Shown here one piece after another: positions 1,828 to 55,370 of a DNA stretch of 64,000 bases. The notes beneath the pieces are model-generated. The model saw only the letters and a program-made list of their open reading frames with translations, was not told the origin of the DNA and searched no databases. A program made the translations under genes and the position numbers. Source of the stretch: Comamonas testosteroni (lineage in GTDB: Bacteria > Pseudomonadota > Gammaproteobacteria > Burkholderiales > Burkholderiaceae_C); assembly GCF_014076415.1 (NCBI RefSeq), contig NZ_CP043568.1, forward strand, positions 4,464,001-4,528,000, in the 5' to 3' direction. Every line of letters starts with the position of its first letter. The stretch's first letter is position 1.

Positions 1828-4634
1828 CACAGTGCCTCTTTGATTTTGTCGGGGGTCACGGGGGTCGCATGAAAGCGCTTGCCCGTGGCATGGGCGATGG
1901 CGTTGACGCAGGCGGCGACCACCGGGATCATCACCACCTCGGCCATGCCCTTGGGCGGATCGGTGCGCGACAGCGGCGGCAGCACCACGCCCTCGGCCTT
2001 CCACACAGCCACTTCGCTGGCGCGCGGCACGTGGTAGCGATTCAGGTTCCACTGGCCGTTGCCGGGGCCGGTCTCGTGGCGCGGCAGGTCTTCGTACAGT
2101 GCATGGCCAATACCCATGGCCACACCGCCCTGGATCTGGCCGGAGACCAGCTCGGGCACGATCTGCGTGCCACATTCCAGCCAGGTCTTGTGCGAGAGGA
2201 GGTTCACCTTGCCCGTGCCCGGGGACACGGACAGCTCCACCATGGTGGCGCAGGGCGCGTAGTACACCGTGCCCGCATTGGTGCGCTGCACCGGCGGGTA
2301 ATAGACCCTGTCGCGTGCGATGAAGGCATAGCCGCCGGATTTCATCGCGGCCTTCCTAGCCTCGCTCGCACCCTTGCCGTACTGCACGGACAGGGCGTCG
2401 ATCATGGCCTGGAACTTCCTGCCCTCGACCGTGAAGTCGGCCTTGGCCCAGGCCCAGCGATTGAAGGCGTGCACGCAGACGCCGGTCACGATGCCCAACT
2501 CGTGTGCGCGGGCAGCCAGGCGCTCCAGGCTCAGCGGCTCCAGGCCCTCGGCCACGAGCATGCGTTCACGCCACTCCAGCATGTCTTCGGTGACGGTGCT
2601 GGGCAGCATCTGCCCCCCACCCTCCTTGCCGGACCAGATTGACTGGGCCGCAGGCCACAGGCAGAGCTTGAGCAGCAGTTGCGCCGCCTGTTGCGTGGCG
2701 TGGCGGAAGTAGTAGGCCGAGTTCGATGCCGATACCGGCGACACCAGGCGCGGTGTCCAGGTCGGATCCCGCGCCAGCTCGTCCTCCTTGGCCTGGGGCG
2801 TGGTGTAAGGCTCGTCCTTGGTATGCAGCGGCAGGTTGTCCCAGTGGTTCACCGCGAAGTCCACGTCGTCCGCCGGGCGCCCCAGGAAGGGCTCGACCGC
2901 CACCAGCTGCGCCGTGGTGCTGCCGGTACCGATCTCGGTGGCGATGTGACGCATCTTGATGCGGCCCTCGGGCGTGATCTCCAGCTGCGCGATCGAGGCC
3001 TCCGCCCCCGTGCCGAAGTCCTTTTGCACGGCACCGAAGCCTATGCCGTAGCGCAGGCCGGGGTTGGCCGCCTCGAAGTCGGCCTTGCGCTTGGCGCGCT
3101 CGATCCACATCGGGTCCTTGGCGGCCATGTCCAGGATCTCGCCTATGCGCAGATGACCCGAGGGCGAGGCACCCTGGGTGTTCTTCATGCTGCTCTTGAG
3201 CACATTGCGCCGGCGCAGCTCGATGGCGTCCAGGCCGATCTCCTGGGCGATCTCATCGACCAGCATCTCGGTATAGGCCATGGATTGCACCGTGCCGTAG
3301 CCGCGCATGGAGCCGGCCGTAACGCCGATGGAGGGGTAGACCTCGGTCGACAGGTCGCTCTCGGGGAAGTAGTAAATGGATTGCGCCGCCGTCACCGCCA
3401 CCGTGCCCACCGAGGGGCTGAAGTTGGTCACGCCGCCGCCATCGCCCACCATGTGGCAGGTCAGCGCGTGGAACTTGCCGTCCTTGTCCACCGAGATCGC
3501 TGTCTCCACGTCGAAGGGATGGCGCTTGAGGGCGAACTGGAAATGCTTCCAGCGGTCCAGCGCCAGCCGCACCGGACGGCCCTGGGCGTACAGCGACGCC
3601 AGTGCCACGTAGAACGGGAAGGGATGGTGCTCCTTCTGGCCGTAGCCCACGGTGTAGGAGCTGATGTAGTCGAGCTGGTTCAGCGGCAGCTTGCTGTCCT
3701 TGAGCATGTGCATCACATGCTCGGCCGTGCCGTAGGGCGCCTGGCTCGCGGCGACCATGTGCAGTGCACCGCTGCCCTGCTCATACCAGGCCAGGCCGTT
3801 TTCCATTTCCATGGCCACATGCTCGATGGACTGGCTGTAGTACTTGCGTGCAAACGCGCGCAAGCCGTCCTTGGGCTGTTTCATCTCGGCCTGGATACGG
3901 GCCGACTCGCCCATCAGCGCACCGAAGGCGGGGTGGCTGCTGTCGGGCCAGTGCACGCCTTTTTCATCGAGCTGAGGCCAGATGACGGTGTTCTTCATGG
4001 GCGAGAACCTGTCCTCGCCATAGCCGTCCTCGCCTTGCACGCGTACATAGCGCGCGGCCACATAGGGTGCGCGCGGCGGCTGGGCAGCCTCGGCTCCGAA
4101 GCGGAAGATCGCGTCATTGAAGCGCAGGCGCTGGTTGGCCACGCGGAACTTCTCGTAGTCGTGCCAGATGGCCACGGCCACCGGGTGGCCCAGCATGGGC
4201 GAAACCTGGCCCTTCCTGACGAAGAACTCGCCGTAGAAGCCCGGCTCGGGCATTCCTACCCCGTCGGCGGCGAGGGACTCGGCGTCGATCAGCACATCGG
4301 GCTGGTAGTCGCTGCCCAGCACCGACAGATCCAGGCCTTCGTAGATGCGGTCGGCGCGCGGGATATGAATGGTCAGCGCGTGCGACTGCTGCGCGGGCCA
4401 GCCCTGCATGTCTCTGGCGCGCAGGTCGATGGCAAAGACCTTCTGCCCGGTGACCTTGGCCATGCCGTCGCGGCGGTAGTTGAGCGTGTTGCCATTGATC
4501 CAGTGGGTCTCCTGACCGCTGGCGGGCGTTATCAATTCCGCAAGCGCGTCTTTGACCGGGCGCACACTCGCAATCACGCCCATGGCGGCGGCAGCCTTCA
4601 GAAAACTGCGCCGATTCAAGTCCAGTTTGGACAC
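1827..4634 (-). CDS. Molybdopterin-binding large subunit, Tat-exported aldehyde/isoquinoline oxidoreductase type (IorB-like)
   Basis: A 935-residue molybdenum hydroxylase large subunit of the xanthine dehydrogenase superfamily. A GTG start at 4634 is preferred over longer frames because AAGGAG lies just upstream and it places a twin-arginine signal (NRRSFLKAAAA) at the N-terminus. The enzyme is therefore probably folded with cofactor and exported to the periplasm. Gly-rich cofactor segments (e.g. MRGYGTVQSMA, GGVAMGIGHALYE) and the typical C-terminal helix (IAHATGKRFHATPVTP) are visible. Family members hydroxylate N-heterocycles or aldehydes using water as oxygen donor. First gene of the operon with the 2Fe-2S and cytochrome genes. 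The precise substrate is unknown. Confidence 0.9.
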   Translation of the reverse strand: MSKLDLNRRSFLKAAAAMGVIASVRPVKDALAELITPASGQETHWINGNTLNYRRDGMAKVTGQKVFAIDLRARDMQGWPAQQSHALTIHIPRADRIYEGLDLSVLGSDYQPDVLIDAESLAADGVGMPEPGFYGEFFVRKGQVSPMLGHPVAVAIWHDYEKFRVANQRLRFNDAIFRFGAEAAQPPRAPYVAARYVRVQGEDGYGEDRFSPMKNTVIWPQLDEKGVHWPDSSHPAFGALMGESARIQAEMKQPKDGLRAFARKYYSQSIEHVAMEMENGLAWYEQGSGALHMVAASQAPYGTAEHVMHMLKDSKLPLNQLDYISSYTVGYGQKEHHPFPFYVALASLYAQGRPVRLALDRWKHFQFALKRHPFDVETAISVDKDGKFHALTCHMVGDGGGVTNFSPSVGTVAVTAAQSIYYFPESDLSTEVYPSIGVTAGSMRGYGTVQSMAYTEMLVDEIAQEIGLDAIELRRRNVLKSSMKNTQGASPSGHLRIGEILDMAAKDPMWIERAKRKADFEAANPGLRYGIGFGAVQKDFGTGAEASIAQLEITPEGRIKMRHIATEIGTGSTTAQLVAVEPFLGRPADDVDFAVNHWDNLPLHTKDEPYTTPQAKEDELARDPTWTPRLVSPVSASNSAYYFRHATQQAAQLLLKLCLWPAAQSIWSGKEGGGQMLPSTVTEDMLEWRERMLVAEGLEPLSLERLAARAHELGIVTGVCVHAFNRWAWAKADFTVEGRKFQAMIDALSVQYGKGASEARKAAMKSGGYAFIARDRVYYPPVQRTNAGTVYYAPCATMVELSVSPGTGKVNLLSHKTWLECGTQIVPELVSGQIQGGVAMGIGHALYEDLPRHETGPGNGQWNLNRYHVPRASEVAVWKAEGVVLPPLSRTDPPKGMAEVVMIPVVAACVNAIAHATGKRFHATPVTPDKIKEAL

Positions 4635-5155: not shown

Positions 5156-5704
5156 ATGAATTCAAGCCCCCGCTATACCGGTACCGCCATCGCCCTGCAC
5201 TGGGTTCTGGCCCTGGCACTGATAGGCATCTTCGCCTTTGGCCTCTATATGACGGGGCTGCCTTTCTCGCCCACACGCCTCAAGTACTTCAACTGGCACA
5301 AATGGGCCGGCATGACGATTCTGATCCTGTCCGTGCTGCGCCTGGTCTGGCGTGTCACCCACCGGCCGCCGGAGCTGCCCGAAGCCGTCACCCGCACCAT
5401 GCCCGCCTGGCAACGCGTAGCCCACCATGGCGTGCATCACCTGATGTATGCGCTGTTTTTTGCCATCCCGCTGGTGGGCTGGATGTACAGCTCGGCAGCA
5501 GGCTTTCCCATCGTGCTGTTCGGTCAATTGCCTCTGCCCGACCTGGTGAGCAAGAGCCCCGAACTGGCCGAAGCGCTCAAGCCCTGGCATGGCTATCTGG
5601 CCTATGCGCTGGCGGCTCTGGTGGTGATGCATATCGCAGCCGTCATCAAGCATCAGATCATTGACCGCGACGGACTGCTGTCACGCATGATTCCGGGGAA
5701 ATAG
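5156..5704 (+). CDS. Cytochrome b561 (CybB-type)
   Basis: A 182-residue four-helix membrane cytochrome b. Hydrophobic spans cover roughly residues 12-32, 48-66, 88-108 and 145-165. Histidines expected to ligate two b hemes sit in ALHWVL, NWHKWAG, HHLMYALF and VVMHIAAVIKHQ. Family members move electrons between quinol and periplasmic partners; E. coli CybB is a superoxide:ubiquinone oxidoreductase. The ATG at 5156 starts the conserved RYTGTAIALHW segment; upstream in-frame residues have no family character. It is followed by two YceI genes, a pairing often seen in proteobacteria, which suggests a shared role in periplasmic quinone or redox chemistry (inference). Confidence 0.92.
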   Translation: MNSSPRYTGTAIALHWVLALALIGIFAFGLYMTGLPFSPTRLKYFNWHKWAGMTILILSVLRLVWRVTHRPPELPEAVTRTMPAWQRVAHHGVHHLMYALFFAIPLVGWMYSSAAGFPIVLFGQLPLPDLVSKSPELAEALKPWHGYLAYALAALVVMHIAAVIKHQIIDRDGLLSRMIPGK

Positions 5705-5837
5705 TCCCCCCTGAGCGGCCCCGCCGCTTCCCCAGGGGACGACAGCTTTGCTGCGCGGCGGCGCTTGCTCGCTGTCTCGCACCTTCAAGGCGCACCGGTT
5801 TTTGAGTTTTTTGTATGTTCATCACAAGGAGTTTTTG
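5705..5837. repeat. GC-rich interspersed intergenic repeat, copy 1
   Basis: The spacer between b561 and yceI contains a CTTCCCC...GGGGACGACAGC...GCTGCGCGGCGG segment that can fold into a hairpin. A second, longer relative lies at about 7910-8035 downstream of the VOC gene. Similar elements are common between genes in Comamonadaceae as I remember them. No coding signal is seen. The yceI RBS (AAGGAG) lies at its right end. Confidence 0.6.
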
Positions 5838-6401
5838 ATGAAAGTCCTTTTTTCCTCCGCACTGATCGCCACCGCCTTCATGGGCACTGCTGCCCAGGCG
5901 GCTCAAGCCCTGGTGCCTGCGCAGAGCGCCGTCAACTTTGAAGCCAAGCAGATGGGCGTGCCGCTCAAGGGGCACTTCAAGAAGTTCGACGCCCAGATTG
6001 CCTTCGACGCCGCCAAGCCTGAGAGCAGCAAGATCCATTTCACCGTCGATACCGGCAGCGCCACCATGGGTGCCAAGGAAACCGATGCCGAACTGCCCAA
6101 GGCAGACTGGTTCAACGTTGCCAGATTCCCTCAGGCCACCTTTGACTCCAGCGCCGTCAAGGCTCTGGGAGGTGGCAAGTTCCAGGTAGACGGCACGCTG
6201 ACCATCAAGGGCAATGCACAGAAGGTGAGCCTGCCCGTGACGCTGACCCAGTCCGGCGCCACCACCACGGCCGCTGGCACGCTGGCGCTCAAGCGCCTGA
6301 ACTTCAAGATCGGCGACGGTGACTGGAAGGACACCTCCATGGTGGCCGACGAGGTCAATGTGCAATTCAAGCTGGCTCTGACCGGCGTCGGTAAGCTCTA
6401 A
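5838..6401 (+). CDS. YceI family periplasmic lipid-binding protein, copy 1
   Basis: This 187-residue protein begins with a clear Sec signal peptide (MKVLFSSALIATAFMGTAAQAA, cleaved after AQA). The mature part has the YceI pattern: LVPAQSAVNFEAKQMGVPLKG near the start, then a central region with WFNVARFPQATFDS, and a final VNVQFKLALTG strand. YceI proteins are eight-stranded antiparallel barrels that bind polyisoprenoid lipids such as ubiquinone precursors in the periplasm. It lies directly after cytochrome b561 and 82 bp before a second YceI gene, with a good Shine-Dalgarno (AAGGAG). The two copies are divergent paralogues. Confidence 0.93.
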   Translation: MKVLFSSALIATAFMGTAAQAAQALVPAQSAVNFEAKQMGVPLKGHFKKFDAQIAFDAAKPESSKIHFTVDTGSATMGAKETDAELPKADWFNVARFPQATFDSSAVKALGGGKFQVDGTLTIKGNAQKVSLPVTLTQSGATTTAAGTLALKRLNFKIGDGDWKDTSMVADEVNVQFKLALTGVGKL

Positions 6402-6483
6402 GCGTTTTTCGGCTCCAGCCCTTGATAGTCAATCGCTGGTAGCTCATGTTTTGATAGTTCCAATCCCTGAAGGAGTATTCACC

Positions 6484-7059
6484 ATGCGTTCCACCCTGTT
6501 CGCCCTGGCCGCTGCGTCCCTGTTTGCCACTGCTGCCCAGGCAGCACCTGCCACTTACGCCATCGACCCCACACACACTTTCGCGACTTTCGAGATCGAT
6601 CACTTTGGCGCCTCGACCAACCGTGCCCGCTTTGACAAGAAGAGCGGCAACGTGCAGTTCGACAAGGCAGGCAAGACCGGCAAGGTCGATGTCGAGCTGG
6701 ACATGACATCGGTGAACTCCGGCACCGCCGCTTTCAACAAGCATCTGCAAAGCGCCGACATCTTTGACGCCGAGAAATTCCCCAGCGCCAAGTTTGTCTC
6801 CGACAAATTTGTCTTCGACGGCGACAAGCTCAAGGAAGTGACCGGCCATCTGACGCTCAAGGGCAAGACCGGCCCCGTCACTCTCAAGGCCAACAAGTTC
6901 ACCTGCTACGAAAGCCCCATGCTGCAAAAGCGTGAAGTCTGCGGCGGCGACTTTGAAGCATCCATCGACCGTACCCAGTGGGGCGTGGACTACGGCATCC
7001 CCTATGGCTTCTCCAAGCAAGTGCGCCTGGTCATGCAGATCGAAGCCGTGAAGCAGTAA
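6484..7059 (+). CDS. YceI family periplasmic lipid-binding protein, copy 2
   Basis: A 191-residue YceI protein with signal peptide MRSTLFALAAASLFATAAQA and the diagnostic TYAIDPTHTFATFEIDHFG opening of the classical E. coli YceI type. The central SADIFDAEKFPSAKFVSDKF and the GVDYGIP segment near the C-terminus match the family. It is a closer match to canonical YceI than copy 1. Shine-Dalgarno GAAGGAG sits upstream of the ATG. GC-rich hairpins followed by a T-run at about 7090-7145 form a terminator after the gene, closing the b561-yceI-yceI unit. Confidence 0.95.
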   Translation: MRSTLFALAAASLFATAAQAAPATYAIDPTHTFATFEIDHFGASTNRARFDKKSGNVQFDKAGKTGKVDVELDMTSVNSGTAAFNKHLQSADIFDAEKFPSAKFVSDKFVFDGDKLKEVTGHLTLKGKTGPVTLKANKFTCYESPMLQKREVCGGDFEASIDRTQWGVDYGIPYGFSKQVRLVMQIEAVKQ

Positions 7060-7093
7060 TCCAGGTCCGTAAAGACTCTCGAGTGAAGCCCTT

Positions 7094-7146
7094 TGCGGGC
7101 TCTCTCTTTGGCCTGGTCCGTGCAAGCGGTCCGGGCTTTTTTGCGT
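7094..7146 (+). terminator. Rho-independent terminator after yceI copy 2
   Basis: GC-rich complementary segments (AGCCC...GGGCT, then a second GGTCCGTG/GCAAGCGGTCC arm) are followed by TTTTTT. Position and T-run suit termination of the rightward b561-yceI transcript. Confidence 0.6.
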
Positions 7147-7253
7147 CTGCGGCCTGCTTCAGACACAAATCCCTTTCATTAAAAAATTTACTTTAGGTTA
7201 ATCAATTACGAATAGTAGAATAAATCCACTCACACAATTGAAGGAGACATCGC

Positions 7254-7904
7254 ATGAGCCAAGCCGCCCCTACTCCGGTTTACTCCCAGCCCCGGCGCGC
7301 GGACATGAGCCAGCTGCCCGCACCTGCCGCCGTGCAGCAGCTGCACCACTACGCCTACAAGGCCAAGGATGCAGAAGAGACTCGTCACTTCTACGAGGAC
7401 ATTCTGGGCCTGCCGCTCTACCACATCATCCAGAGCGACTACGTCCCCTCCACGGGCGAGTACTGCCCTTACACCCATTTCTTCTTCCGCCTCAAGGACG
7501 GCTCCTTCATCGCCTTCTTCGACATCGGCGACGACGAAGCGGCCCTGCCCTCACCCAACACTCCGATCTGGATCAATCACATCTCCTTCCGTGTGGACTC
7601 CGTGCAGGAGCTGGAAAACACCAAGGCCCGCCTGCAGGCCTGCGGCGTGGAAGTGCTGGGCGTGACAGATCACCACATCTTCAAGAGCATCTACTTCTTC
7701 GACCCCAACGGCATTCGCCTGGAGCTGACGGCCCAGTTGGCCGACGAGCTGCAGATGCTCAAGGAAAGCAAGACCGCCCATGCACGCCTGGACGAGTGGA
7801 CGGCCCGCAAGCAGCAGTGGCGCAAGGAACGTGCCGAAGGCAAGTCCAGCGCTCCGCTCAAACCGCAGAACAACGACCGACCGGAGTTTGTTCCCACCAA
7901 GTAA
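7254..7904 (+). CDS. VOC-family (glyoxalase/dioxygenase superfamily) protein
   Basis: This 216-residue protein contains one VOC domain, about residues 22-155. It starts QLHHYAYKAKDAEETRHFYEDILGLPL and ends with the typical FFDPNGIRLELTAQL. Candidate metal ligands are the His in LHHYAY, a His in the middle (WINHISF) and the Glu in IRLELTA. Known members are glyoxalase I, extradiol dioxygenases and fosfomycin-resistance enzymes, so the reaction cannot be deduced. The C-terminal 50 residues are charged and helical. A strong RBS (GAAGGAG) and an AT-rich promoter region (7170-7235) precede it, and it appears to be transcribed alone. Confidence 0.85.
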   Translation: MSQAAPTPVYSQPRRADMSQLPAPAAVQQLHHYAYKAKDAEETRHFYEDILGLPLYHIIQSDYVPSTGEYCPYTHFFFRLKDGSFIAFFDIGDDEAALPSPNTPIWINHISFRVDSVQELENTKARLQACGVEVLGVTDHHIFKSIYFFDPNGIRLELTAQLADELQMLKESKTAHARLDEWTARKQQWRKERAEGKSSAPLKPQNNDRPEFVPTK

Positions 7905-45718: not shown

Positions 45719-46417
45719 ATGCAATCTGTAGACGTCACCCGCCGAGAAAATCTGAGCCTTCTCATCAAGGAAGCCGGCAGCCAGGCCGCACTTTCAGAAG
45801 TAATCGGGAAGGCACCAGCTCAGATCAGCCAATGGCTGAATGCCTCTGCCAACTCCCGCACCGGCAAGCCCAGAGTGATGAGCAACGCTATTGCCCGCGA
45901 GATAGAAGAGAAAACTGGAAAGCCCACAGGCTGGATGGATCAGCCCGCATCAAGCACAGACCTATCAATCCCTGGCGGCTCGAATGTTGAGCTTGAGCTA
46001 CCGCAAGGGGTGCGACGGGTTCCAGTCATCTCCTGGATACAGGCCGGCATCTGGACGGAAATCGTTAACACCTTTGCACCAGGCGATGCGGACGATTGGC
46101 TGATAACCAGCGACAGAGTTTCGGACAAGTCTTTCGTCCTGAAGATTCGCGGCAACTCCATGGAGCCAGACTTCAAAGAAGGCGACACGGTAGTCATTGA
46201 CCCGAGCGTTACACCCCGCCCCGGTTCGTTCGTAGCCGCAAGAAATGGCCGCGAAGAGGCAACCTTTAAAAAGTACCGCCCTCGATCAATCGACATAGTC
46301 GGAAATGAGATCTTTGAACTCGTCCCTCTCAACGAAGACTACCCAACCATGCGATCAGACGAAACACCAATCTCGATCATCGGGACCATGGTCGAGCACC
46401 GCAGGTACTTTAGATAG
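45719..46417 (+). CDS. CI-like phage repressor with S24 peptidase domain
   Basis: A 232-residue LexA-like repressor. The N-terminal HTH (SQAALSEVIGKAPAQISQWLNASANS) is followed by a peptidase with Ser in RGNSMEPDFKEGDTVVID and Lys in EATFKKYRPRS. RecA-stimulated self-cleavage would release the prophage from repression. The gene begins without an evident RBS, at the edge of the operator. A hairpin (GGCCTCTTCAAGAGGCC + TTTTTTT) follows at about 46442-46467. Confidence 0.9.
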   Translation: MQSVDVTRRENLSLLIKEAGSQAALSEVIGKAPAQISQWLNASANSRTGKPRVMSNAIAREIEEKTGKPTGWMDQPASSTDLSIPGGSNVELELPQGVRRVPVISWIQAGIWTEIVNTFAPGDADDWLITSDRVSDKSFVLKIRGNSMEPDFKEGDTVVIDPSVTPRPGSFVAARNGREEATFKKYRPRSIDIVGNEIFELVPLNEDYPTMRSDETPISIIGTMVEHRRYFR

Positions 46418-49826: not shown

Positions 49827-49885
49827 CTGCGCTACCCATCACAGCCCGCCACTGTGAACTGACCCCTTAAAGTTGGACAGTTAAA

Positions 49886-50722
49886 TTACGGGCACATGGC
49901 CTGAGTTCGGTATTGCACCGGGCTCAGGCCTTTTAACTTCATCTTGATTCGATGATGGTTGTAGTAACGGATGTAGTTCACCAACTCACCGCGCAGATGC
50001 TCGGCGCTTGTGAACTTCTGCATGTAAAACAACTCCGTCTTCACTGTCGCAAAGAAGCTCTCCATCGCAGCGTTGTCCAGGCAATTGCCCTTGCGTGACA
50101 TGCTTTGGACCACACCTTTGGTGGCCAGGTGGCGGCGATAGGCCGGCATCTGGTATTGCCATCCCTGATCGGAATGCAGCACAGGCGCAGTCTGGCCTTT
50201 GAGTTTGCCAAGCGCCTTTTTCAGCATGTTGCCCACCAGTTGGAAGTCTGGCTTGTCACGCATCTCATAGGCCACGATCTCGCCGTTGTACAGGTCCATG
50301 ACCGGCGACAGGTAAAGCTTGCTGCCACGAACATTGAACTCCGTCACATCCGTCACCCACTTCTGCTGCGGCGCATCCGCCTGGAATTGGCGCTGCAGCA
50401 GATGAGGCGCCTGAGCATTGACTGGGCCTCGGTAGGCACGGTACTTCTTGGGTCTGACCAGAGACTTCAAACCTTGCACCTGCATCAAGCGCTGGACGGC
50501 TTTGTGATTGATGACGCATCCCGCTTGGCGCAGATGCGCTGTGATGCGGCGATAGCCATACCGCCCCTTGTGCTTGTCGAAGATGCCTTGGATCTGGGCC
50601 TTTAGGCCCGCACAGGAGTCACCGCAGCGAAGCACCTGGCACTGGTAATAGAACGTGCTGCGAGCCAGCCTTGCAGCCTTGAGCAATTGCGCCACAGAGT
50701 ATTCATGCCTCAGTTCAGTCAC
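49886..50722 (-). CDS. IS3-family transposase OrfB (integrase core)
   Basis: A 278-residue DDE transposase: HTH-like N-terminus then rve core with Asp in WVTDVTEFNV, Asp in VLHSDQGWQYQ and Glu in NAAMESFFATVK (DDE triad). The GTG at 50722 overlaps the orfA stop, but the natural product is likely the OrfAB fusion made by -1 frameshifting at 50776-50782. Confidence 0.93.
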   Translation of the reverse strand: MTELRHEYSVAQLLKAARLARSTFYYQCQVLRCGDSCAGLKAQIQGIFDKHKGRYGYRRITAHLRQAGCVINHKAVQRLMQVQGLKSLVRPKKYRAYRGPVNAQAPHLLQRQFQADAPQQKWVTDVTEFNVRGSKLYLSPVMDLYNGEIVAYEMRDKPDFQLVGNMLKKALGKLKGQTAPVLHSDQGWQYQMPAYRRHLATKGVVQSMSRKGNCLDNAAMESFFATVKTELFYMQKFTSAEHLRGELVNYIRYYNHHRIKMKLKGLSPVQYRTQAMCP

Positions 50723-51264
50723 GGCTTGCGCTTTGTCAGCATTGCCTGTTGCTTTGCCCGAACCAAGGCATCCAATTTTTTTAGGTACGCCACCTCCGCG
50801 CGCAGGTATTCGTTTTCTTTGCGCAGTGCTTGCAGCGCTTTGGACTCGTCTACGGATGTGGACGAAGACTTGAGTGGCTTGGGAGGTTTGGGGGCGGGCA
50901 TCTTCTTGGGGCGGCCACGGCGCTGGGGTTCAAGCGCCTCTGGGCCGCCCTCATGATACTGACGCTCCCACCTGGCAAGGATGCCTGTGCCGCCGCGCAG
51001 ATTGAGTAAAGCGACTACCTGTCGGTACGTCAGGGCCTCACGCCACATGCGCTTGAGTGCTTGGAGCTTGAATTGAGCGCTGTAGTGCGCGCCCTGTCCT
51101 TTGCGGCACAGACCATCATCTCCATGCCACCGATAGACATCTACCCATTGGCGCACGGTGGAGCGGTCTATCCCATGCTTGGTTGCAAGCACTCTGAATC
51201 CACCAGTGCCATCCAAATATTCCCGGACTACGGTCCTTTTGAAATCTAAATCATGCCTCGCCAT
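50719..51264 (-). CDS. IS3-family transposase OrfA (HTH)
   Basis: A 181-residue OrfA: two HTH regions (VLATKHGIDRSTVRQWVDVYRWHG; ALTYRQVVALLNLRGGTGILARWERQY) then a coiled coil (ALQALRKENEYLRAEVAYLKKLDALV). Near its end the codons CTA AAA AAA TTG provide a -1 slippery run, and the -1 frame continues without stop into OrfB. Confidence 0.9.
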   Translation of the reverse strand: MARHDLDFKRTVVREYLDGTGGFRVLATKHGIDRSTVRQWVDVYRWHGDDGLCRKGQGAHYSAQFKLQALKRMWREALTYRQVVALLNLRGGTGILARWERQYHEGGPEALEPQRRGRPKKMPAPKPPKPLKSSSTSVDESKALQALRKENEYLRAEVAYLKKLDALVRAKQQAMLTKRKP

Positions 51265-51352
51265 GAACAACACCTCTTCGGTTGGATCAGTGTCCAACTT
51301 TTGGGGTGCAGTTCAACTGAGCGGGCTTTTTGTTTTCAACCGAGGAGCATCC

Positions 51353-51946
51353 ATGCATATCGCACACGCCGAGAACATTCACATCCACCTGCCCACAGGC
51401 CTCACCCTGGGATCGCCTCTGTCGACATTTCTGGACACCGCAAGCGCAGTCTCGCCCATCGCGATCAGCGAAGCATTGGCCATTCACTCCGTGGGCCACG
51501 GCGAGTACTGGGCCGGCCAGGGCGGTCACTTCATCTGCACGCTGCCCGCAATGCACGGACTTCCAGCCCGCCACCTGATCGCGGCAGCAGAGGAGAACGA
51601 ATGCACTTGGGGCAAGGGCGGCGAGGACGTGCCCGGCGCCGCCAGCCAATACGACGGCAAGGCCAACACCGCAGCCCTTGTCGCGCACGGCGGTCACCCT
51701 GCCGCCGAATGGGCTGCCAGCTATGAGGCGAACGGACTCAAGGACTACTACCTGCCCAGTCGCCTCGAGCTGCTGATGTGCTACCTGGCCGCCCCCCAGC
51801 TCTTCAAGAAAGAAGGCTACTACTGGAGCAGCTCGCAGTCCTCGCGCTTCAACGCCTGGTGCCAGGACTTCGAGGACGGCGGCAGCGACTACGACGACAA
51901 GGTCAACGAGCTTCGCGCTCGCCCCGTCCGCACGATTCAACTTTAA
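51353..51946 (+). CDS. DGR target protein 1, C-type-lectin-like (DUF1566) variable protein
   Basis: A 197-residue protein with a C-terminal lectin-like domain of the DUF1566/Lcl type (YYLPSRLELLMCYL...YYWSSSQ). Its last 35 codons are variable repeat VR1 (51834-51932), aligned to the template at 53661-53760. Ten differences to the template are seen and all lie at template adenines. The N-terminal part differs from the other two targets. RBS CGAGGAGCATCC. A hairpin CCGGCGC-GCA-GCGCCGG and T-run follow 36 bp after VR1. Confidence 0.93.
   Translation: MHIAHAENIHIHLPTGLTLGSPLSTFLDTASAVSPIAISEALAIHSVGHGEYWAGQGGHFICTLPAMHGLPARHLIAAAEENECTWGKGGEDVPGAASQYDGKANTAALVAHGGHPAAEWAASYEANGLKDYYLPSRLELLMCYLAAPQLFKKEGYYWSSSQSSRFNAWCQDFEDGGSDYDDKVNELRARPVRTIQL
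51834..51932 (+). repeat. VR1: variable repeat of target 1
   Basis: About 99 bp. Versus the template: TAC to TCC; AAC to TTC, GAC, GGC, GAC, TAC, GAC; GAC to GTC. Ten substitutions, all at template A. Invariant segments such as TGGTGCCAGGACTTCGAG and the GC-rich end (GCTTCGCGCTCGCCCCGTCC, candidate IMH) are identical to the template. Confidence 0.93.
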
Positions 51947-51967
51947 GCCTTCATCCCTTCATCACTT

Positions 51968-51994
51968 CCGGCGCGCAGCGCCGGTTCTTTTTTT
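51968..51994 (+). terminator. Hairpin/T-run after VR1
   Basis: CCGGCGC-GCA-GCGCCGG, then TTCTTTTTTT. It begins 36 bp after VR1. It may be a terminator and also the DGR hairpin that in BPP-1 aids retrohoming. Confidence 0.8.
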
Positions 51995-52009
51995 CTGCAG
52001 GACATTTTC

Positions 52010-52513
52010 ATGAACACCATCCAACTGCCAGCCATCGGCTGCTTCATCGTCAGCCAAGGCGGCTACCTGGGCGCCATCATGCGCGGCCCTGCCGCTGACG
52101 GCAGCCAGGACTACGCACTGATCGTGCCGGCTGCTACAGGCGCTGAAATCGAGGCTATCGCCTGGACTCCCGAGTACGTGAAGATCGAAGGCGCCGATAG
52201 CAAGACTGACGGCGTTGCCAACACAGCCGCCATGACTGCAGCTGGTCTGGAGCTGGCAAAGCGCATCACTGAGCTGGATCTGCACGGCTTTAAGGACTGG
52301 CATCTGCCCGCCACCCATGAACTGCGCGCCCTCTACCTCAATGTGCCGGAGCTTTTCTCCAAGGATGGCTGGTACTGGAGCAGCACGCAGTACTCGCGCA
52401 GCCTCGCCTGGTGCCAGGACTTCGAGTGCGGCCTCAGCAGCTTCAGCGGCAAGGACCTCGAGCTTCGCGCTCGCCCCGTCCGCCAGATTCCACTTTCCCA
52501 CTTCAACTCTTGA
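52010..52513 (+). CDS. DGR target protein 2, C-type-lectin-like (DUF1566)
   Basis: A 167-residue protein; central DWHLPATHELRALYLNVPELF and WYWSSTQYSR are DUF1566-like. The C-terminus from 52386 is VR2, with 14 differences from the template, all at adenines. It is a paralogue of target 3 (same length, similar N-terminus with GYLGAIM and GADSKTDGVANTAAMTAAGLELAK). RBS CAGGACATTTTC. Same hairpin module after it. Confidence 0.93.
   Translation: MNTIQLPAIGCFIVSQGGYLGAIMRGPAADGSQDYALIVPAATGAEIEAIAWTPEYVKIEGADSKTDGVANTAAMTAAGLELAKRITELDLHGFKDWHLPATHELRALYLNVPELFSKDGWYWSSTQYSRSLAWCQDFECGLSSFSGKDLELRARPVRQIPLSHFNS
52386..52483 (+). repeat. VR2: variable repeat of target 2
   Basis: Against the template: AAC to AGC, CTC, TGC, CTC, AGC, TTC, AGC and CTC, and GAC to GGC. 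Fourteen substitutions, all at template adenines. No change at G, C or T of the template within the core. Confidence 0.93.
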
Positions 52514-52519
52514 TTACTT

Positions 52520-52547
52520 CCGGCGCGCAGCGCCGGTTCTTTTTTTC
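52520..52547 (+). terminator. Hairpin/T-run after VR2
   Basis: CCGGCGC-GCA-GCGCCGG and TTCTTTTTTT, 37 bp after VR2; identical in sequence to the one after VR1. Confidence 0.8.
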
Positions 52548-52560
52548 CACAGGAGCATTC

Positions 52561-53064
52561 ATGCGCACTATCACATTGCCCGCACTGGGCAGCTTTATCA
52601 CTGGTCAAGGCGGCTATCTGGGCGCCATCATCCGTGGCGCAGCCGCCGACGGAAGCCTGGACTATGCAGTCATCGTCCCCGAGGAGGAAGGCGCAGAACT
52701 CAAGGATGTCGCCTGGTCTGAGGAGTACACCACCATTGAGGGCGCCAGCAGCAAGATTGATGGCGCAGCCAACACTGCCGCCATGGCTGCCGCTGGCCTG
52801 GAGCTTGCCAAGCACATCACCTCGCTGGAGCTGCACGGGCACAAGGATTGGTATCTGCCATCTGCAGGCGAGCTGCGCGCACTCAGTGCCAACGTCTCAG
52901 ACCTGTTTCACTTCGATGACTACTACTGGAGCAGCACGCAGTACTCGCGCACCAGCGCCTGGTGCCAGGACTTCGAGCTCGGCAGCAGCTACGACCTCGG
53001 CAAGGTCAACGAGCTTCGCGCTCGCCCCGTCCGCCAGATTCCACTTTCGCACTTCAATGCTTAA
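52561..53064 (+). CDS. DGR target protein 3, C-type-lectin-like (DUF1566)
   Basis: A 167-residue paralogue of target 2 (RTITLPALGSFITGQGGYLGAI, SLELHGHKDWYLPSAGELRAL, YYWSSTQYSRTS). Its end is VR3, with 11 differences from the template, all at adenines. RBS CAGGAGCATTC. A 9-bp-stem hairpin GACCGGCGC-TT-GCGCCGGTC follows. The last target before Avd. Confidence 0.93.
   Translation: MRTITLPALGSFITGQGGYLGAIIRGAAADGSLDYAVIVPEEEGAELKDVAWSEEYTTIEGASSKIDGAANTAAMAAAGLELAKHITSLELHGHKDWYLPSAGELRALSANVSDLFHFDDYYWSSTQYSRTSAWCQDFELGSSYDLGKVNELRARPVRQIPLSHFNA
52937..53034 (+). repeat. VR3: variable repeat of target 3
   Basis: Against the template: AAC to ACC, AGC, CTC, AGC, TAC, GAC and CTC; GAC to GGC and GAC to GTC. 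Eleven substitutions, all at template adenines. The last AAC is unchanged. Confidence 0.93.
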
Positions 53065-53071
53065 CCACTTC

Positions 53072-53091
53072 GACCGGCGCTTGCGCCGGTC
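53072..53091 (+). other. Hairpin after VR3
   Basis: GACCGGCGC-TT-GCGCCGGTC, a 9-bp stem with a 2-nt loop, 38 bp after VR3. Only a short T-run (TAATTTTT) comes after it, so a DGR-related role (cruciform) is plausible beside termination. Confidence 0.65.
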
Positions 53092-53103
53092 GCGTAATTT
53101 TTC

Positions 53104-53469
53104 ATGGCACTGACCACTGATCTTGATATCTACAAGCAAGCCAGCGGACTGCTTTCGCTGGCCATCGACGTGCAGGCACAAATCCCCCGAGCCTTTCGAG
53201 CCTCGATGGGATGCCGAATCGCTGATGAATGTGTTGAACTGCTGGTTCTCATTGGCCGAGCCAATGCCGCACGCACGGGCCCCGCCCGTGCCGCACACAT
53301 CGACGCATTGCTTGAGCGGCTGGAAGTCGCCCGCTTTCTGCTGCGTGCTGCACATGACCACAAGCAACGGCTGATCAGCACGTCGCTATGGACTCGCAGC
53401 ATCGCCATCAGCGACAGCATCAGCAAGCAGGCTCACGGATGGCTAAAGTCAGCGCGCCAGCGCCCATGA
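53104..53469 (+). CDS. avd: Avd-like DGR accessory protein (four-helix bundle)
   Basis: A 121-residue protein of the Avd/four-helix-bundle type. LDIYKQASGLLSLAIDVQAQIPRAFRASMGCRIADECVELLVLIGRANAAR and the later LEVARFLLRAAHDHKQRLIS match the pattern of bacterial Avd proteins (basic, helical, no metals). Avd binds the reverse transcriptase and template RNA as a pentamer. It lies between the last target and the template repeat, as in the BPP-1 mtd-avd-TR-brt order. Confidence 0.88.
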   Translation: MALTTDLDIYKQASGLLSLAIDVQAQIPRAFRASMGCRIADECVELLVLIGRANAARTGPARAAHIDALLERLEVARFLLRAAHDHKQRLISTSLWTRSIAISDSISKQAHGWLKSARQRP

Positions 53470-53660
53470 AAACCGCAGCGCCTGCTGCATGACGGTCAAG
53501 GCCTTCATGCCCGTGCGTTTTTGAATCTGGTCGGGCCGCTGGACCACAAACCCACCGCCAGGTGCACCAAGGGAACGATCCGGCAAGCCGGACACGCCCT
53601 GCACAGTGGCCGCACTGATCGGCAATGCCTTCGGCGCAGCCATGTAGATAGCCCGACACG

Positions 53661-53760
53661 TCGCAGTACTCGCGCAACAACGCCTGGTGCCAGGACTTCG
53701 AGAACGGCAACAGCAACAACAACGACAAGGACAACGAGCTTCGCGCTCGCCCCGTCCGCA
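53661..53760 (+). repeat. TR: template repeat of the DGR
   Basis: About 100 bp containing 28 adenines, including eight AAC codons (frame: Q Y S R N N A W C Q D F E N G N S N N N D K D N E). It is homologous to VR1-VR3 with all 35 differences at A positions. It is not within a real gene. The GC-rich 3' part (GAGCTTCGCGCTCGCCCCG) is identical in all four copies (IMH/IMH*). A hairpin GGCCGGC-CTCGC-GCCGGCC (53772-53790) follows 12 bp later, before the RT gene. Confidence 0.94.
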
Positions 53761-53771
53761 GATTCAATCCC

Positions 53772-53790
53772 GGCCGGCCTCGCGCCGGCC
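53772..53790 (+). other. Hairpin after TR
   Basis: GGCCGGC-CTCGC-GCCGGCC, a perfect 7-bp stem in the short 40-bp spacer between TR and the RT start. It may shape the template RNA or limit transcription into the RT gene. No T-run. Confidence 0.7.
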
Positions 53791-53800
53791 ACCTCTCACC

Positions 53801-54907
53801 ATGAATACACCTGCCACCTTCGAGGAACTCACTCAAGCCTATCTGGACTGCCGCCGCAACAAACGCAACAGCGCAAGCGCGTTGGCCTTCGAGTTGCATC
53901 TGGAGCGCGGCCTGTGCGAACTGTACGAGCAGTTGTTGGCTGGAACCTACCGGCCCGGCCACAGCATCTGCTTTGTCATCACCCGCCCCAAGCCCCGAGA
54001 GGTCTGGGCTGCCGATTTCCGCGATCGCATCGTGCACCACCTGCTTTACAACCGAATCGCCCCACGATTCCATGCGGCGTTCACCGCAGACTCATGCGCC
54101 TGCATACCTGGGCGCGGAACACTGTACGGAGCCAAGAGACTGGAGCAGCAGGCGCGCAGCGTCACACGAAACTGGAGCAGGCCAGCGCATTACCTCAAAT
54201 GCGATTGCGCCAACTTCTTTGTATCCATAGACAAGCTGGTCTTGCGTGAGCGCATCGCGCGGCGAGTGCATGAGCCATGGTGGCTTGAACTGGCCGACAC
54301 CATCCTGTTTCACGATCCACGCGAGAACGTGGAGGTACGCGGCAACGCCCACGACCTGCGCAAGGTGCCGCCACACAAGAGCCTGTTCAATGCACCGCCA
54401 GATACCGGCCTGCCGATTGGCAACCTATCCAGCCAGTTCTTTGCCAACATCCTGCTGGACGGGCTGGATCAGCATGTCAAGCACCGACTGCGCGCACCCC
54501 ACTACGTGCGCTATGTCGACGACTTCGTGCTACTGCATCACTCTGCACAATGGCTGAGCAGCGCACTCAAGCACATCGAGGAATGGCTGCCACAAAACCT
54601 GCGTCTCCAGCTCAATCCACGCAAGACCATCATCCAGCCCGCCGAGCGCGGCATCGACTTCGTGGGCCAGGTCATCAAGCCTTGGCGGCGCACCACACGC
54701 CCGCGCACCCTCCATTCGGCGCTAAAGCGACTGGAGCACATGCCCACAGCAGAAGTCTACGCAGCAGGCAACAGCTATCTCGGCCTGGCGCGTCAGGCCA
54801 GTCACAGCCACAAAGAACAAGCGCAGATCTGCAGAGCCTTGCTCAAGCGAGGCCATGCCATCGAAGGTCTGCACCTATCCAAAGCCTTCAGGAACCACCA
54901 ATCATGA
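53801..54907 (+). CDS. DGR reverse transcriptase
   Basis: A 368-residue reverse transcriptase. The catalytic YVDD (HYVRYVDDFVLLH, about residue 235) is present; the motif after GLP is IGNLSSQFFANILLDGLD, the IGxxxSQ that distinguishes DGR RTs from group II intron and retron enzymes. Palm-1 (YLKCDCANFFVSI) and FADDSCACIPGRG-like segments are normal. It copies TR RNA with A-specific errors, and the cDNA replaces VR. Start at ATG 53801 (upstream frame is TR). Overlaps the next gene (ATGA). Confidence 0.95.
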   Translation: MNTPATFEELTQAYLDCRRNKRNSASALAFELHLERGLCELYEQLLAGTYRPGHSICFVITRPKPREVWAADFRDRIVHHLLYNRIAPRFHAAFTADSCACIPGRGTLYGAKRLEQQARSVTRNWSRPAHYLKCDCANFFVSIDKLVLRERIARRVHEPWWLELADTILFHDPRENVEVRGNAHDLRKVPPHKSLFNAPPDTGLPIGNLSSQFFANILLDGLDQHVKHRLRAPHYVRYVDDFVLLHHSAQWLSSALKHIEEWLPQNLRLQLNPRKTIIQPAERGIDFVGQVIKPWRRTTRPRTLHSALKRLEHMPTAEVYAAGNSYLGLARQASHSHKEQAQICRALLKRGHAIEGLHLSKAFRNHQS

Positions 54908-55320
54908 AGTTTCAACCGATCCACCGCGCACGCATCGTTGCAGCCCTGCAAGAGTCAGGTCCGATGACATCAGCAGAGGTTGCCGAGTATCTGGATTTAC
55001 CCCATAAGGTCGTGCGCGCCTGCATCGCATCGACGCGATGGCTGTTACCGCACCAGGTGTTTCGCATAGTTCGTTATCAGCCCGTCACAGGCTACCGTGG
55101 GCGCGATCTTCCTGTCTACGCTGCAGAAACAGGACCCGATGCAGCCCACATCGTCAACCCCGCAAAACGCCGCAAGCAGGCCGAGGCACGCTACCGAGAA
55201 AAGCACCGCGCATCGATCAACGCGCGCGGCCGCACCACGGTCACGGCACCAGCCAACCCTTGGCTGCAACTGGCTCCGCCGGAAATCAGGGGTGCCATGT
55301 CCCTTCAAGGCCGAATCTAA
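54904..55320 (+). CDS. Winged-helix DNA-binding phage protein coupled to the RT gene
   Basis: A 138-residue protein. An N-terminal winged helix (RIVAALQESGPMTSAEVAEYLDLPHKVVRACIASTRWLL) is followed by a basic region (NPAKRRKQAEARYREKHRASINARGRTT). It overlaps the RT stop by 4 bp, so it is co-translated with the DGR. It may regulate the element or be an ordinary phage protein. Confidence 0.72.
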   Translation: MKFQPIHRARIVAALQESGPMTSAEVAEYLDLPHKVVRACIASTRWLLPHQVFRIVRYQPVTGYRGRDLPVYAAETGPDAAHIVNPAKRRKQAEARYREKHRASINARGRTTVTAPANPWLQLAPPEIRGAMSLQGRI

Positions 55321-55339
55321 AGGCCACGCACCACCAATC

Positions 55340-55370
55340 ACAGCCCGCCACTGAGCAGGGTTCATTTTTG
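55340..55370 (+). terminator. Degenerate hairpin after the DGR
   Basis: AGCCCGCC-ACTGA-GCAGGGTT, a diverged copy of the CCCGCC-ACTGA-GCGGGC module; no long T-run, so termination is doubtful. Confidence 0.4.

What the first reader, a model, noticed from the sequence alone, without database searches (positions are those of the whole stretch)
51353..54907. Complete diversity-generating retroelement in the prophage
Target genes with C-type-lectin-like ends, an Avd protein, an adenine-rich template and an RT with IGxxxSQ plus YVDD sit in order. Aligning the three variable repeats to the template by eye gives 10, 14 and 11 differences (35 in total), every one at a template A and none at G, C or T in the core. 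This is the A-to-N hallmark of DGR retrohoming. The element is in the rightward small-gene arm on the strand opposite to the tail genes.
Basis: partly seen in the sequence, partly recalled or inferred. Interest (0 to 1): 0.95.

Follow-up and report, generated by a model that had tools for sequence, protein, structure and literature searches.

The report
Prophage mutation machine with flipped RNA
A dormant virus in this bacterium carries three binding-protein genes whose tips differ from one template only at adenines, so a copying enzyme likely keeps rewriting them, and the template is predicted to be clamped by an RNA lying on the opposite side from the textbook version.

Summary
Three variable repeats differ from a 98-nt template at 10, 14 and 11 places, all 35 at template A. 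RT, Avd and three lectin-like targets are present: a complete diversity-generating retroelement (DGR).

Evidence of past activity: in a close relative (RT 95%) the template differs by one non-A base, and all three repeats of each phage carry their own template's base. Over 30 disjoint pairs of relatives, 335 of 337 repeat alleles follow their own template.

Two features set this clade apart. (1) The structured RNA (Rfam RT-15) lies 5' of the template; BPP-1's conserved RNA lies 3'. RT-15's unpaired conserved motif is complementary to the template's 3' edge, with 31 compensated changes on the RT tree against 0-9 when the partner is slid. An invariant GG sits at the helix's inner end. This is the plan of a retron msr-msd RNA. 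(2) The cassette lies on the strand opposite the late genes in 31 of 31 informative phage genomes or contigs; in 7 annotated DGR phages outside the clade it lies with structural genes.

So this is a real DGR of a known kind with an RNA architecture I found in no searched paper. Priming site, present activity and target function are untested.

The parts
51353..51946 (+). Target gene 1 (197 aa), Lcl_C/DUF1566 C-type-lectin-like domain, VR1 at its 3' end
   Evidence: Pfam Lcl_C 5e-7, below cut-off; PHROG 4245 1.7e-28
51834..51931 (+). VR1
   Evidence: 10 differences from TR, all at A
51968..51984 (+). 7-bp GC hairpin 37 nt after VR1, followed by a T run; putative homing element and/or terminator
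   Evidence: identical in relative L085
52010..52513 (+). Target gene 2 (167 aa), Lcl_C
   Evidence: Pfam 1.2e-10
52386..52483 (+). VR2
   Evidence: 14 differences, all at A
52520..52536 (+). Hairpin after VR2, same sequence as after VR1
52561..53064 (+). Target gene 3 (167 aa); predicted Lcl-type C-type-lectin fold
   Evidence: PHROG 4245 5e-28; AF2 mean pLDDT 95.2; best PDB fold match 8q4e, Legionella Lcl C-terminal domain, E 3.9e-5
52937..53034 (+). VR3
   Evidence: 11 differences, all at A
53071..53092 (+). 9-bp hairpin after VR3
53104..53469 (+). avd, accessory variability determinant (121 aa)
   Evidence: PHROG 3206 'Avd protein of DGR' 1.8e-24; identical protein in L085
53476..53663 (+). 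RT-15 RNA (Rfam RF03018), structured RNA directly 5' of TR
   Evidence: 164.9 bits, gathering 82, full model
53521..53529 (+). 5' strand of helix P0 (UUGAAUCUG), unpaired in the Rfam consensus
53529..53530 (+). GG, the same in all 133 rows of the alignment, at the inner end of P0; candidate priming site (inferred)
53662..53759 (+). Template repeat TR
53759..53767 (+). 3' strand of helix P0 (CAGAUUCAA), starting on the last base of TR
53801..54907 (+). DGR reverse transcriptase (368 aa)
   Evidence: Pfam RVT_1 9e-15; PHROG 1423 1.3e-113; IGNLSSQ, YVDD

Best explanation
This prophage carries a diversity-generating retroelement in which three lectin-gene repeats differ from one template only at adenines, so its reverse transcriptase likely copies the template RNA with errors at A and writes the copy into the three genes, and that template RNA is predicted to be held by a conserved RNA lying 5' of it that base-pairs with its 3' edge. 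Shown by sequence: the parts, the A-only differences, the template alleles shared by all repeats of each phage, and compensated changes between the RT-15 motif and the template's 3' flank. Inferred: RT and Avd bind the RT-15 domain; helix P0 puts the start of copying at the last bases of TR; copying starts from the RNA strand that ends in the invariant GG, as in retrons; the cDNA then homes into the VRs, helped by their identical 3' block and the hairpin 37 nt downstream. Also inferred: the targets are made with the repressor-integrase arm, hence early or in the lysogen, rather than with the tail genes.
For: A-only differences, 35 of 35. In 272 VR segments of the clade A is changed at 3330 of 7412, C 10 of 7628, G 14 of 5282, T 13 of 2934. 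TR marker at 53741 (T here, C in L085): all three VRs of each phage carry their own TR's base, while the target genes upstream of the VRs differ at 145 of 1233 sites and the other 210 non-A VR sites do not differ. 30 disjoint pairs of relatives, 79 marker sites: 335 own, 1 other, 1 neither. RT-15 directly 5' of TR in the window and in 11 of 12 relatives tested. P0: 125 of 133 loci anchored, 84.6% standard pairs; pair 7 occurs as G-C 57, U-A 52, C-G 5, A-U 2 and U-G 2, 118 of 125; 31 double standard-to-standard changes on the RT tree against 0, 9, 4 and 3 with partners slid by -2, -1, +1, +2. The TR flank pairs better than the VR flank, 0.848 against 0.715. The minimum-energy fold of the window holds P0. 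In L089 319 nt part TR from RT, but the P0 strand stays with TR.
Against: No expression, cDNA or population data exist here. The whole RNA folds only slightly better than shuffles (z -1.3), and in the window alone a 9-pair match to the upstream stretch has a chance of about 0.02, so the helix rests on the comparison. Pairs 1-5 hardly vary and say little (0.917 against 0.903 shuffled); pair 6 is standard in only 61 of 125. The tree also has 70 changes from a standard to a non-standard pair. 8 of 133 loci could not be anchored and were dropped. The VR searches penalise non-A mismatches, so non-A rates and 'own' counts are favourable by design; the window's own 35 of 35 is on a fixed block. Shuffles of partners do not keep relatedness. 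An IS3 copy upstream of target 1 may have changed expression.
Confidence: 0.82

Rival explanations
1. A DGR that works just as BPP-1: a 3' spacer and the start of the RT gene carry the primer, and RT-15 is only a regulator of RT or avd expression.
For: The RT resembles BPP-1 brt (28.7% identity over residues 1-314); Avd is present. A short hairpin lies between TR and RT in the window.
Against: The TR-RT gap is 44 nt or less in 131 of 132 loci, often about 0. The first codons of RT show no more synonymous constraint than the rest (0.83-0.90 over codons 1-48, mean 0.89). Rfam finds the Phage_DGR RNA 3' of TR in BPP-1 but not here. RT-15 covaries with the TR edge.
Confidence: 0.12
2. The complementarity of RT-15 and the TR flank serves target choice: the RNA pairs with the VR flank DNA, not with TR.
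For: The VR flanks resemble the TR flank (VR2 and VR3 have CAGATT).
Against: Pairing is lower for VR flanks, 0.715 against 0.848 for TR flanks; in VR1 the register is broken.
Confidence: 0.08
3. The targets are virion receptor-binding proteins, as in BPP-1, only encoded away from the tail genes.
For: Long phage proteins, one of them named tail fiber protein, contain a stretch that matches the target's fold; many phage DGR targets are predicted tail proteins (PMC8144416, passages and one section read).
Against: Late genes lie on the other strand in 31 of 31 informative genomes or contigs. Targets 1-3 are 197, 167 and 167 aa, about the size of the lectin domain alone.
Confidence: 0.4
4. A decaying element: the repeats are relics and the IS has silenced it.
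For: An IS3 element lies just upstream of target 1; Comamonas terrae (L006) keeps a copy that has lost the stretch from target 2 to the RT 5' end.
Against: The frames of all five genes are open. The probably derived TR base at 53741 is in all three VRs (L085, L086 and L087 have C in TR), so homing happened in this lineage.
Confidence: 0.15

Closest known systems
Bordetella phage BPP-1 DGR (mtd-avd-TR-brt)
   Same: Gene order target-avd-TR-RT, A-directed changes, hairpin after VR; lectin-fold target (recalled for Mtd).
   Different: BPP-1: avd touches TR, TR-RT gap 144 by the record's annotation or 159 by my TR ends, Phage_DGR RNA 3' of TR, same strand as tail genes. Here: 192 and 41, RT-15 5' of TR, opposite strand. 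Hairpin loops GCA or CTTG, not GRNA.
Rfam RT-15 (RF03018)
   Same: Full-length match directly upstream of TR; annotated as misc_RNA in phage Cruim01.
   Different: The Rfam table calls it only 'RT-15 RNA', and its consensus leaves the P0 motif unpaired; the partner lies beyond the template, outside the model.
Retron msr-msd RNA
   Same: A helix joins the RNA 5' of the template to the template's 3' end, and its inner end abuts a conserved G (description from passages of PMC6868368).
   Different: The RT is not a retron RT by model (St85 model 43 bits, cut-off 235); there is a VR target; no 2'-5' link is shown.
DGRs of Burkholderia phage Magia, Pseudomonas phages Haboob, Cruim01 and phPA-G, Shewanella phage QDWS
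   Same: Same RT clade (58-62% identity), same arm between repressor and integrase; Magia's lectin-fold proteins were annotated as possible DGR targets.
   Different: Other gene neighbours; their TR and VR were not aligned here.
Legionella Lcl C-terminal domain
   Same: Best solved fold for the target.
   Different: NCBIfam's Lcl model is a collagen-like adhesin of 431 positions; the targets match only its end, far below its cut-off.

Membership tests
Diversity-generating retroelement | TR-VR pairs that differ at template A | tested here: met
   35 of 35
   IGNLSSQ and YVDD; best solved relative 8ub7
Diversity-generating retroelement | Accessory protein Avd | tested here: met
   PHROG 3206 1.8e-24; Pfam bAvd 36.7 bits against cut-off 40; NCBIfam 26 against 80
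Diversity-generating retroelement | Target with C-type lectin fold, VR at its C-terminus | tested here: met
   VR codons with template A at position 1 or 2 1.81 bits against 0.35 for other VR codons, 84 sequences
Diversity-generating retroelement | Retrohoming of cDNA into VR | tested here: inconclusive
   Past homing seen as shared TR alleles; not observed in the act
BPP-1-type DGR RNA | Structured spacer RNA of over 100 nt between TR and RT (Rfam RF03022) | tested here: not met
   Gap 41; only RT-15 found
BPP-1-type DGR target site | Hairpin after VR, 7-10 bp stem, 4-nt GRNA loop, 4-34 bp away (PMC3240598, passages) | tested here: not met
   Hairpins at 37 nt with GCA (VR1, VR2) or CTTG (VR3) loops; in the clade 84 of 257 VRs have a hairpin, 6 with shuffled flanks
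Retron | Retron-type RT | tested here: not met
   Retron St85 43 bits, cut-off 235; no other model named retron was reported at the limit used
Retron | Helix between the 5' part and the template 3' end, with a conserved G at its inner end | tested here: met
   the helix is a prediction from covariation
Retron | 2'-5' RNA-cDNA link | not testable with these tools
   needs biochemistry
Rfam RT-15 | Score over gathering | tested here: met
   164.9 against 82

The most novel reading that the evidence does not exclude
This DGR clade has a circularly permuted, retron-like template RNA: a 5' scaffold (RT-15) pairs across the template with its 3' edge and primes mutagenic copying from an invariant internal G, which makes it a living link between retrons and DGRs, and it diversifies lectins made in the early or lysogenic programme instead of tail fibres.
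Probability: 0.4. Interest if true: 0.85.

Novelty: new variant of a known kind. Interest (0 to 1): 0.68.

Why it matters
It gives Rfam's RT-15 RNA a likely job: template scaffold of a DGR clade that turns up in many beta- and gammaproteobacterial genomes and in viral contigs (113 and 333 stretches encoding relatives of the RT in two collections, the best 80 of each kept). It makes the question of how a DGR starts copying testable in a second, mirrored RNA, and suggests that DGR and retron priming are variants of one plan. The constant position opposite the late genes raises the open question of what a temperate phage gains from hypervariable lectins that are not in the tail operon.

Tried and rejected
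A single fused triple-lectin target in L085, suggested by an open frame of 582 aa, was rejected: the ORF list shows three separate genes. An RNA element inside the RT coding start was rejected for lack of synonymous constraint. A fixed orientation against the integrase was rejected: I count 18 same, 14 opposite and 2 with both, of the 34 of 46 records with a match. The hairpin after VR is not universal (84 of 257). Defence-system models gave only RT matches for the RT (best 25 of 65 shown) and none for the seven other proteins. In one search target 3 was given one base out of frame and scored nothing; in frame it was tested with PHROGs, NCBIfam and the fold. Complementary stretches in 9 control phages were mostly at chance; VP58.5 had a 10-pair stretch 5' of its TR (p about 0.01), which I did not follow up. 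Papers: searched the library; the titles and abstract starts listed (capped lists) do not tell of RT-15 as a DGR RNA, and 'RT-15 RNA' and 'RF03018' occur in no held paper. Three papers asked for by DOI (the candidate-RNA survey and two on BPP-1 RNA, titles recalled) are not held, so prior mention there is possible.
Full report
WHAT IS THERE. The cassette runs 51353-54907 on the + strand: three target genes, each ending in a variable repeat, then avd, a 192-nt stretch, the template repeat, 41 nt, and the RT. On a fixed 98-nt block the three repeats differ from the template at 10, 14 and 11 positions, 35 of 35 at A (chance 10^-22.5). The template's four places are the only ones found in the 5.9-Mb genome. 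In the frame of target 3 TR encodes QYSRNNAWCQDFENGNSNNNDKDNELRARPVR. In 84 target sequences (82 homologues, targets 2 and 3), codons with a template A at position 1 or 2 have a mean entropy of 1.81 bits, other VR codons 0.35, and the part before the VR 0.83. The predicted fold of target 3 is confident (mean pLDDT 95.2) and its best solved match is the Legionella Lcl C-terminal domain (E 3.9e-5).

HOMING HAS HAPPENED. The nearest relative found, IMG/VR contig L085 (RT 95% identical), has the same three targets. Its TR differs from the window's at one base of 98: C for T at 53741. All three VRs of the window have T, all three of L085 have C. Upstream of the VRs the target genes differ at 63 of 481, 49 of 376 and 33 of 376 sites, yet the other 210 non-A VR sites do not differ at all (VR3 allowing for a 3-nt insertion in L085); at 11.8% divergence the chance of this is 4e-12 if sites were free to change, which they may not all be. 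At A sites VR1 and VR2 differ between the phages at 14 and 12 of 27. L086 and L087 also have C in TR, so T is probably the derived state and has reached all three VRs of this prophage. The same test on the relatives: 109 pairs with similar TRs, own allele 1378, the other's 3, neither 3; in 30 disjoint pairs, 335, 1 and 1. Caveat: VRs were found with a penalty on non-A mismatches.

THE CLADE. 172 loci had the RT; after removing copies of the window and duplicates 144 were distinct, 132 of them with TR and VR, 277 VRs in all, most often two per locus (84 loci) or three (29); some loci end early, so VR numbers are lower bounds. Changes in 272 VR segments: A 44.9%, C 0.13%, G 0.27%, T 0.44%; A goes to G 1713, T 1085, C 532 times. 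Length changes are rare: 250 of 257 anchored VRs keep the length; 4 gained 3 nt inside an AAC run, one each +1, -1 and -23. Slippage in AAC repeats has been proposed before (PMC12875486, passages).

THE RNA. Rfam finds RT-15 at 53476-53663, ending on the second base of TR, and in 11 of 12 relatives tested; the miss is L172, RT 47%. In BPP-1 the Rfam DGR RNA lies between TR and brt, and in BalMu-1 RT-14 starts at the end of TR. Nine DGR phages outside the clade were compared. Of the 8 with an annotated avd, 7 have 0-34 nt between avd and TR; 8 of 9 have at least 103 nt between TR and RT (for three of these the RT start was estimated from homology). The exception in both is Bacuni_F1 with 128 and 38, like the window's 192 and 41. 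In the clade the TR-RT gap is 44 nt or less in 131 of 132, and the start of the RT gene shows no extra synonymous constraint. So the structured part has changed sides.

THE P0 HELIX. Rfam leaves a 14-nt stretch of RT-15 unpaired that holds the conserved UGAAUCUGG. In the window UUGAAUCUG (53521-53529) is the exact complement of CAGAUUCAA (53759-53767), which starts on the last base of TR. Both ends were then anchored on neighbouring conserved letters without looking at pairing: 125 of 133 loci (chosen by distinct upstream sequence), 84.6% standard pairs; on the 94 distinct pairs of ends 84.0%, and sliding drops this to 18-43%. Pair 7 is standard in 118 of 125 and occurs as G-C, U-A, C-G, A-U and U-G; pair 2 as U-A (119) and C-G (5). 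For pairs 6-9 the 94 distinct end pairs give 0.745; 2000 reshufflings of partners give 0.521, sd 0.019, at most 0.582. On an RT tree (FastTree) of 122 loci, parsimony gives 31 double changes from one standard pair to another, against 0, 9, 4 and 3 for partners slid by -2, -1, +1 and +2, and at most 15 in 100 reshufflings. Against it: 70 changes break a pair, and pair 6 is often A opposite C. The minimum-energy fold of the window holds P0 around the RT-15 domain and TR, though the total energy is not unusual (z -1.3), and in the window alone such a match has a chance of about 0.02.

HOW IT LIKELY WORKS. The 5' strand of P0 is antiparallel to the template and ends where copying must start. Its last base and the next (G53529, G53530) are the same in all 133 aligned rows (the row of L172, without RT-15, is doubtful). 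A review of retrons describes this plan: the 5' end of msr pairs with the 3' end of msd, and the stem contains or ends at a conserved guanosine that primes through a 2'-5' bond (PMC6868368, passages). In BPP-1 the primer is an adenine of the 3' spacer (PMC12875486, passages). I infer that here the RNA 5' of TR does both jobs, scaffold and primer. The priming nucleotide is the least certain step.

WHERE IT SITS. In the window the late genes (tail fibre, J protein, tape measure, head, portal, terminase) and CII-like and replication genes are on -, while a CI-like repressor (45719-46417), the DGR, excisionase and integrase are on +. I searched 49 relatives' records: 46 of the 80 viral contigs, mostly the longer ones, and 3 phages. 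19 have a J-type tail protein and 12 a large terminase by profile; in the 27 with either, it is on the strand opposite the RT in all 27 (the match in G063 is weak); the other 22 are not informative by profile. Annotation adds Magia, phPA-G and QDWS; with the window, 31 of 31. In the five named phages Cruim01, Magia, Haboob, phPA-G and QDWS the RT lies between repressor and integrase on their strand; among the contigs the integrase strand is mixed. Outside the clade, BPP-1, ACA1, VHML, phiARM81mr, BalMu-1, Lagaffe and Bacuni_F1 have the DGR on the strand of adjoining genes annotated as structural; Bise and VP58.5 carry no telling annotation. Targets in the clade are short (median about 170 aa over 264 ORFs picked by script, some in a wrong frame), and 4 of 140 that passed a filter had a strongly hydrophobic start. 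I lean slightly to a role in the lysogen or early infection, such as blocking other phages, but a virion role is open.

COMPARED WITH THE KNOWN. As a DGR it is a member of a known kind; DUF1566 targets and several VRs per DGR are known (PMC6642488, passages), and a large survey found viral targets of three DGR clades mostly annotated as tail proteins (PMC8144416, one section and passages). The trailing, 3' structured RNA is the model in print (PMC8867640 and PMC12875486, passages). The mirrored RNA, the P0 helix and the opposite-strand rule I found in none of the papers searched; two papers on BPP-1 RNA were not available.

Noticed in passing
49855-51315: IS3-family element, 1461 bp with a 4-bp ACTG duplication, inserted in a terminator-like hairpin just before target 1; absent at this place in L085.
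   Followed up: partly
54904-55320: Winged-helix-like gene overlapping the RT stop; among 175 other loci found only in L085 and in L006/L091/L166 (one Comamonas terrae locus).
   Followed up: partly
L006 (Comamonas terrae), 5331-7259: Decayed relative: target 1 kept, the stretch from target 2 to the RT 5' end missing.
   Followed up: partly
49838-49854 and 55337-55353: The 17-mer ATCACAGCCCGCCACTG brackets the IS plus the whole DGR cassette; possibly a repeated terminator, possibly a cassette boundary.
   Followed up: no
L187 (Bacteroides phage Bacuni_F1), 3225-3495: Another DGR with TR close to RT and far from avd (38 and 128 nt) but no Rfam match: the mirrored layout may be older than this clade.
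   Followed up: no
L193 (Vibrio phage VP58.5): 10-nt complement of the TR 3' flank upstream of TR.
   Followed up: no
L085:5132-5232: VR3 gained one codon inside the AAC run of the template, one of four such gains in 257 VRs.
   Followed up: partly
53524: The A at P0 pair 6 is kept in 116 of 133 rows although its partner varies between U, C, A and G: it may be constrained by something other than pairing.
   Followed up: no
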